A DNA stretch of 64,000 bases from Paraglaciecola sp. (GTDB lineage: Bacteria; Pseudomonadota; Gammaproteobacteria; Enterobacterales; Alteromonadaceae): NCBI GenBank assembly GCA_009993955.1, contig JAACSL010000014.1, forward strand, positions 44,674 to 108,673, written 5' to 3'. Both the position numbers and the translations under genes were made by a program. The notes under the pieces are model-generated. The model had not been told where the DNA came from, did not search any database, and was given only the letters and a program-made list of their open reading frames with translations. The stretch's first letter is position 1. Every line of letters begins with the position of its first letter. Below, piece by piece: positions 61,259 through 63,936 of this stretch.

Positions 61259-62926
<1,668 letters not shown>

Positions 62927-62973: not shown

Positions 62974-62996
62974 AAACCCGCTTCGGCGGGTTTTTT
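62974..62996 (+). terminator. Intrinsic terminator downstream of groEL
   Basis: AAACCCGC-TTCG-GCGGGTTT followed by TTT. Confidence 0.92.
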
Positions 62997-63176
62997 ATTG
63001 CCTGCAAAATCAGGCTTTCATTTGTCGCTGCGCGACGGGCTAATGCGCTGTGCTCATTAAGATTATGCGCTGCGCGCACTTATCGCTGCGCGACCGCAAT
63101 CCATTGCTTATTTCAAGCAGCATCCCTGCTGCTTGAGTTACTTCTTTCCAACAGCCGAAAGAACTAACGAAGAAAG

Positions 63177-63320
63177 GCCGCTCTCCAACCAAGTTCTATT
63201 CCTTGCGCTACTTGGCAAATAAAGGTCGCGATGACTTGTTCCCGACAAGACATCACTCAAATTACATCCATGTAATTTTCCCTTTATTTGCCTGCGGTGC
63301 TCGGGGAACTTGGAGTCGAG
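63177..63320. repeat. Module copy 1: GCCGCTCTCC ... CGGGGAACTTGGAGTCGAG with nested inverted arms
   Basis: CCAAGTTC (63189-63196)/GAACTTGG (63306-63313); GGCAAATAAAGG (63214-63225)/CCTTTATTTGCC (63281-63292). Confidence 0.85.
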
Positions 63321-63624
63321 GGAAAACGATAAGTTTCTTCGAATTTAAGAGTTGTTTGTCGATTATTTAAGATGGATGCCCTATTAGGTACTTCGTGCAC
63401 TGGCTTCCATGCCATTTTTCAAACGACATCCTTGTCGCCCGACCATACTTTTTTGTAAAGTGCATCCCTGCACTTTACCTTACGGCCAGCTATAGCTGTC
63501 CCATATTTATCCCGTAAATATGGTCAACAGCTAAGAAGAGTAGGCACAAATTTTTATGGAAAAAATTTGAACATCCGAAGGATGGCCCGAAGGGTGAAAT
63601 ACATGGATGTATTTCATAACAAAA

Positions 63625-63778
63625 GCCGCTCTCCGGCAAACTTCCTAATCCAATTTCACCCGCACCTTGTTGATCAAACCGGCGCAGGTAACATCCATGT
63701 AAAGCAGGCGCCTTGTCCAAACGTCCATGTTTGGACATTTGACAAGACACAGCTGAAATCGGGGAAGTTGGAGTCGAG
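63625..63778. repeat. Module copy 2: GCCGCTCTCC ... CGGGGAAGTTGGAGTCGAG with nested inverted arms
   Basis: AACTTCC (63639-63645)/GGAAGTT (63763-63769); ATTTCA (63653-63658)/TGAAAT (63754-63759). Confidence 0.85.
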
Positions 63779-63936
63779 AAAAAATTAACAGCGTCGCTGC
63801 GCGATATGGCACTTCATGAATGAAACATCACTATCCGAACAAAATAAATATGTGTGTCCTATTAAGCGTGTTTTTATTGCCTTGTATACTGTACTTACGT
63901 AGCAGATATTTTTTATATATATAACCTGAGATCGGT

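What the first reader, a model, noticed from the sequence alone, without database searches (positions are those of the whole stretch)
63001..63805. Mosaic of micro-hairpins with conserved TCCN/TCCCG loop but unrelated stems downstream of groEL
Read directly: TCAAGCAGCA-TCCC-TGCTGCTTGA (63113-63136), CTTGT-TCCCG-ACAAG (63235-63249), AAATTACA-TCCA-TGTAATTT (63259-63278), CGACA-TCCT-TGTCG (63424-63437), GTAAAGTGCA-TCCC-TGCACTTTAC (63455-63478), CCATATTTA-TCCCG-TAAATATGG (63501-63523), TGTCCAAACG-TCCA-TGTTTGGACA with one G.T pair (63714-63737). In the opposite orientation: TGAAATACA-TGGA-TGTATTTCA (63595-63616) and CAAATTTTT-ATGGA-AAAAATTTG (63547-63569). Ordinary REP/BIME/MITE families conserve the stem and vary the loop or flanks. 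Here the loop is fixed and every stem is different, so the apparent constraint is 'any stem closing a TCCN loop'. That would fit a loop-recognising nuclease, transposase or protein, or a templated palindrome-forming process such as fold-back synthesis primed around TCC. I know of no named element class with this signature.
Basis: partly seen in the sequence, partly recalled or inferred. Interest (0 to 1): 0.87.

Follow-up and report, generated by a model that had tools for sequence, protein, structure and literature searches.

The report
Repeated RNA hairpins built for CsrA
The odd hairpins after groEL are copies of a known structured-RNA element (TwoAYGGAY), whose loops read GGA on the RNA strand and look like docking sites for the global regulator CsrA, and the element turns out to be a scattered, genome-amplified DNA repeat in many marine and other gammaproteobacteria.

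Summary
The hairpins are real and far beyond chance. Rfam RF01731 (TwoAYGGAY RNA, CsrA-binding clan) matches 63621-63788 (-) above its cut-off. A covariance model built here finds a second, diverged copy at 63178-63323 (-). Fixed loop with free stem is what protein-bound RNA hairpins show. Among 38 relatives, 24 of 34 base pairs change on both sides with pairing kept. G.U outnumber A.C mismatches about 6:1 on the GGA strand, so selection acts on RNA, not on cruciform DNA. GGA-loop hairpins are not enriched genome-wide; they sit almost only in these repeats. The element is a dispersed repeat: about 9 copies in this Paraglaciecola genome, up to 30 in other gammaproteobacteria, homogenised within genomes, favouring gene 3' ends. 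In several genomes it forms head-to-head pairs, some inside roughly 600-bp units with terminal inverted repeats. Most likely it is a family of repeat-borne CsrA decoys. Transcription and CsrA binding were not testable. TwoAYGGAY, and the proposal that it binds CsrA, are published; I found no description of the repeat behaviour or of the second paired-GGA module. New variant of a known kind.

The parts
63621..63788 (-). TwoAYGGAY RNA copy B: closing stem, hairpin TGTCCAAACATGGACGTTTGGACA and a weaker ACATGGATGT hairpin
   Evidence: RF01731, 46.5 bits against gathering 43; own model R1 63626-63781, 149.7 bits, a member of its training set; fold z-score -4.7
63178..63323 (-). TwoAYGGAY copy A, diverged: 12-bp closing stem GGCAAATAAAGG/CCTTTATTTGCC around hairpins with loops CGGGA (63235-63249) and TGGA (63259-63278)
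   Evidence: R1 45.8 bits, E 6.7e-10, not in the training set; fold z-score -5.2; inverted repeat I3
63096..63136 (-). Paired GGA hairpins (module M2): GCAA-TGGA-TTGC (63096-63107) and TCAAGCAGCA-GGGA-TGCTGCTTGA (63113-63136)
   Evidence: sequence, hairpins; homologous pairs in other own-genome copies L004, L006, L008
63402..63437 (-). Second M2-type pair: GGC-ATGGAA-GCC (63402-63413) and CGACA-AGGA-TGTCG (63424-63437)
63449..63526 (-). Module M5 copy 1: CCATATTTA-CGGGA-TAAATATGG and GTAAAGTGCA-GGGA-TGCACTTTAC around a short middle hairpin; interrupts the M3 hairpin
   Evidence: structure scan, alignment A2, fold z-score -6.0
63547..63616 (+). Module M5 copy 2, opposite strand: CAAATTTTT-ATGGA-AAAAATTTG and TGAAATACA-TGGA-TGTATTTCA
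   Evidence: conserved core GAACATCCGNAGGATG in 14 of 22 genus genomes
63138..63196 (.). Module M3: conserved flanking hairpin with loop CAACAGC and the GCCGCTCTCC border of copy A
   Evidence: recurs in most copies
63019..63094 (.). Module M1: short GCTGCGC hairpins at the left edge; the same motif (63793-63804) marks the right edge
   Evidence: repeat families D4, D5, D7
61280..62926 (+). groEL, host gene; its terminator-like hairpin is at 62974-62993 and the repeat block starts just after it

Best explanation
The block is two tandem copies of a dispersed repeat whose RNA (mainly the minus strand here) folds into TwoAYGGAY structures plus extra paired GGA-loop hairpins. Each A(N)GGA hairpin is a CsrA/RsmA site, and sites come in pairs that one CsrA dimer could bridge. 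Transcripts reading through the repeat would act as CsrA decoys or local CsrA anchors at gene 3' ends. SHOWN: TwoAYGGAY homology, loop consensus, covariation, RNA-strand asymmetry, multi-copy dispersal and within-genome homogenisation. INFERRED: transcription, CsrA binding, titration.
For: RF01731 above cut-off in the window and at three further own-genome sites; nine own-genome matches with the genus model at E below 0.06. Loop consensus CANGGAYG over 235 hairpins, against the SELEX site RUACARGGAUGU (PMC7652899) and the high-affinity ANGGAX hexaloop on a stem (PMC4005645). Paired sites fall within the 10-63 nt that CsrA can bridge. 24 of 34 pairs covary, 187 double-change cells against 53 in shuffles. 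G.U:A.C 24:4, p = 9e-5; 10 groups favour G.U, none A.C; both halves of head-to-head pairs do so on their own GGA strand, 11:2 and 11:1. One CsrA gene in the genome. TwoAYGGAY was predicted to bind CsrA in PMC4333381.
Against: No sigma-70-like promoter and no near-consensus GacA-type site (2 mismatches or fewer) near the block; the terminator-like sites on the GGA strand are weak. Patchy presence among relatives (47 of 148) does not suggest an essential sRNA. M5 copy 2 has GGA on the other strand, so no single RNA carries every site. Stems of 9-10 bp are longer than most SELEX ligands. In tandem gene contexts the elements do not favour the sense strand (15 against 20). No expression or binding data.
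Confidence: 0.62

Rival explanations
1. A mobile or selfish DNA repeat (MITE/BIME-like) in which the hairpins serve replication or transposition as DNA; resemblance to CsrA sites is incidental.
For: Dispersed and tandem copies, 68 of 89 closest to a copy in the same genome against 5.6 expected; 23 of 32 close neighbours are head-to-head; in G237 the pairs lie inside 75-95 bp terminal inverted repeats, 94-99% identical in the best cases; presence/absence at the orthologous groEL site; avoidance of divergent promoter regions, 27 convergent against 6 divergent.
Against: G.U over A.C asymmetry tied to the GGA strand and a match to the CsrA loop beyond GGA are not expected of DNA hairpins. No target-site duplication at three inspected G237 copies.
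Confidence: 0.2
2. Dedicated Csr-type small RNA genes (like CsrB or Aln1a-c) that were duplicated, each with its own promoter.
For: Several GGA hairpins per ~150-nt unit; the family sits in Rfam's CsrA-binding clan; Alteromonas has three tandem Csr sRNAs in 404 bp (PMC5864184).
Against: No promoter, no activator site, only weak terminators; variable locations and copy numbers; no CsrB match in the genome, but also no proof that a canonical Csr sRNA is absent.
Confidence: 0.12
3. Templated palindrome formation (fold-back synthesis around TCC) with no selected function.
For: Homologous hairpins in different copies carry entirely different but perfect stems (alignment A2); some closing stems elsewhere are very long and perfect (L036, L037).
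Against: Does not explain strand-specific G.U excess, the conserved A and closing C-G around GGA, or paired spacing; homologous columns change gradually by compensatory pairs.
Confidence: 0.04

Closest known systems
TwoAYGGAY RNA, Rfam RF01731 (Weinberg 2010, PMC2864571)
   Same: Same fold and AYGGAY loops; scores above the curated cut-off; known taxa include gammaproteobacteria
   Different: Here part of a multi-module dispersed repeat, often as head-to-head pairs; copy A has CGGGA and TGGA loops and was not reported by the Rfam scan
CsrB/CsrC, RsmX/Y/Z and Alteromonas Aln1a-c (CsrA-sequestering sRNAs)
   Same: Repeated A(N)GGA in hairpin loops with free stems
   Different: Those are discrete, regulated, highly expressed genes in few copies; these are many-copy repeats without recognisable promoters; stems here are longer
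REP/BIME elements
   Same: Dispersed, palindromic, paired in inverted orientation, located at gene 3' ends
   Different: REPs conserve the stem; here the loop is conserved and stems covary, with RNA-strand bias
MITEs
   Same: Non-coding, multi-copy, terminal inverted repeats in some genomes (G237)
   Different: No target-site duplication seen; Paraglaciecola copies lack a clean terminal inverted repeat pair; no transposase linked

Membership tests
TwoAYGGAY RNA (RF01731) | Score above the curated gathering threshold of 43 bits | tested here: met
   Copy B 46.5 bits; three more own-genome copies 49.1-51.3 bits. Copy A was found only with the genus model
TwoAYGGAY RNA (RF01731) | Two AYGGAY-type hairpins enclosed by a closing stem, supported by covariation | tested here: met
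   single copies vary (copy B's second hairpin is absent from its minimum-energy fold)
CsrA/RsmA-binding sRNA class | Multiple A(N)GGA motifs in hairpin loops | tested here: met
CsrA/RsmA-binding sRNA class | CsrA protein encoded in the genome | tested here: met
   88.8 bits
CsrA/RsmA-binding sRNA class | Own promoter, GacA/UvrY site and strong intrinsic terminator | tested here: not met
   consensus scans only, and not every known Csr sRNA needs a GacA site
CsrA/RsmA-binding sRNA class | Expression and physical binding of CsrA | not testable with these tools
   needs RNA-seq, EMSA or CLIP
CsrB (RF00018) | Match to the CsrB covariance model | tested here: not met
   no match in the own genome at E up to 10
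REP/BIME | Conserved palindromic stem sequence | tested here: not met
   89 distinct inner stem hexamers among 169 hairpins
REP/BIME | Associated REP tyrosine transposase (RAYT) | not tested
MITE | Terminal inverted repeats | tested here: inconclusive
   clear in G237 and long inverted repeats in other head-to-head pairs; not seen as such in the window
MITE | Target-site duplication | tested here: not met
   three G237 copies inspected by eye in the sequences; small sample

The most novel reading that the evidence does not exclude
A transposon-like repeat family that spreads through gammaproteobacterial genomes while carrying CsrA-binding RNA, so that mobile DNA sets the cell's pool of decoys for a global post-transcriptional regulator (or uses CsrA for its own spread or tolerance).
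Probability: 0.3. Interest if true: 0.85.

Novelty: new variant of a known kind. Interest (0 to 1): 0.55.

Why it matters
TwoAYGGAY RNA was described in 2010 and I found no experimental test of its function. Showing that it is a dispersed, amplifying repeat under RNA-level selection, with loops that match CsrA sites, turns it into a testable link between repeat DNA and a global regulator. It also offers a general reading of 'fixed loop, free stem' hairpins and a simple strand test (G.U against A.C) for telling RNA elements from DNA palindromes.

Tried and rejected
Genome-wide enrichment of TCCN/GGA-loop hairpins: rejected, confined to repeats. Phage or plasmid relatives of the block: none found. 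A canonical CsrB in the own genome: no match to RF00018; a pattern hit at C8:70679 looked promising but lies inside a coding gene that reads as ftsH. GacA-type upstream site: hits at or below chance. Sense-strand 3'-UTR preference: none. Strand asymmetry for module M5 alone: G.U 10, A.C 3 cells but only 4 against 3 columns, inconclusive. Within G237 alone the G.U test has too few cases. Two literature searches for an earlier description of CsrA-type repeats found none.

Full report
OBSERVATION. All nine hairpins are present as written. The 64-kb window holds 39 perfect stems of 7 bp or more with 3-6 nt loops; seven of them crowd into 63113-63737 and all seven have TCC or GGA in the loop. Shuffled windows give 10-25 such hairpins of any kind in the full 64 kb. 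In 464 kb of the own genome, 11 of 72 stems of 8 bp or more have a GGA/TCC loop: six here, three in other copies of the same repeat, two elsewhere. The loop preference is therefore not a property of the genome but of one repeat family.

IDENTITY. Rfam's covariance models find TwoAYGGAY RNA (RF01731, clan CL00106, shared with RsmY) on the minus strand at 63621-63788, 46.5 bits against a gathering score of 43. Three more copies in the same genome pass the cut-off. I aligned 38 copies from the genus and built a model. It finds copy B again and, at E 6.7e-10, a second unit at 63178-63323 that was not in the training set, and nine places in the genome at E below 0.06. Record titles for a diagnostic sequence of the element are mainly Paraglaciecola, and several of those contigs have the same lengths as contigs of genomes given as same-genus, so the host is most likely a Paraglaciecola. 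One CsrA gene is present.

WHAT IS CONSERVED. Read on the GGA strand, 235 hairpins from own and related loci give CANGGAYG: C about 0.7 at -3, A about 0.8 at -2, G about 0.8 at +4. Published CsrA ligands read RUACARGGAUGU with GGA in a hairpin loop (PMC7652899), and the high-affinity form is an ANGGAX hexaloop directly on a stem (PMC4005645). The window's CGACA-AGGA-TGTCG (63424-63437, minus strand) contains ACAAGGAUGU, the core of the SELEX site. Gardner and Eldai (PMC4333381) had already predicted CsrA binding for TwoAYGGAY from its loops, and noted that the motifs generally come in pairs because CsrA is a dimer.

STEMS. In the genus alignment 24 of 34 pairs have changes on both sides with pairing kept; 95% of cells pair; 187 cells are double changes against 53 in shuffles; sliding the partner columns destroys the signal. 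Its core occurs in 14 of 22 genus genomes, including ones where TwoAYGGAY was not detected.

RNA OR DNA? In RNA a G.U pair is tolerated, and the same mutation seen from the other strand is A.C. If DNA hairpins were selected, both should be equally common. On the GGA strand, stems of 10 or more Watson-Crick pairs carry 24 G.U and 4 A.C mismatches (p = 9e-5). Split by genome group, 10 favour G.U and none A.C. In genomes with head-to-head pairs, the plus and minus halves each favour G.U on their own GGA strand (11:1 and 11:2, G431/G525). Caveat: most loci were chosen with a covariance model, which scores G.U above A.C. The hairpin-only count, oriented by the loop alone, is 9:1 but on overlapping loci.

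REPEAT BEHAVIOUR. The element is found in 47 of 148 relatives and 28 of 387 genomes sampled across the class (both counts are lower bounds because filters were strict). Permissive searches count up to 30 copies per genome. 68 of 89 copies have their closest relative in the same genome against 5.6 expected. Of 32 close neighbours, 23 are head-to-head. In G237 such pairs lie inside terminal inverted repeats of 75-95 bp, 94-99% identical in the best cases, although the two enclosed TwoAYGGAY units have different stems. Copies prefer convergent over divergent intergenic regions, 27 to 6 (ORF calls are crude). At the orthologous site after groEL, three relatives carry related blocks and seven lack them. 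No target-site duplication was seen in three G237 copies.

MECHANISM. The best-supported reading is a repeat-borne family of CsrA docking RNAs, likely decoys or local anchors made by read-through at gene 3' ends. Homology, covariation, RNA-strand selection and dispersal are shown. Transcription, CsrA binding and titration are inferred. Against a standard sRNA gene: no promoter, no near-consensus activator site, weak terminators, patchy distribution, and one module on the opposite strand. Against a purely DNA element: the strand asymmetry and the extended loop consensus.

NOVELTY. The RNA family and the CsrA proposal are published. Its nature as an amplifying, composite, often head-to-head repeat, the M5 module and the CGGGA/TGGA variant were not described in the literature I could search. 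New variant of a known kind, interest 0.55.

Noticed in passing
window 63547-63616 (+) and 63449-63526 (-): A ~78-nt module (core GAACATCCGNAGGATG) with two GGA-loop hairpins, in 14 of 22 Paraglaciecola genomes and in at least one other genus of the family; not an Rfam family as far as searched.
   Followed up: partly
L218-L225 (genome G237): Roughly 600-bp composite units: two head-to-head TwoAYGGAY RNAs with different stems inside near-identical terminal inverted repeats.
   Followed up: partly
L036 and L037: TwoAYGGAY copies in other genera capped by perfect or near-perfect closing stems of roughly 30-48 bp, which suggests very recent formation or a copying process.
   Followed up: no
L060/L062/L246/L247 (genome G088): Same-strand tandem arrays of TwoAYGGAY units spaced about 430-630 bp.
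   Followed up: no
window 64000 and ends of contigs C16, C23, C57, C69, C77: Many copies lie at or near contig ends, so the draft assembly probably breaks at these repeats and the own-genome copy count is a lower bound; the ends of C57 and C69 share one further repeat.
   Followed up: no
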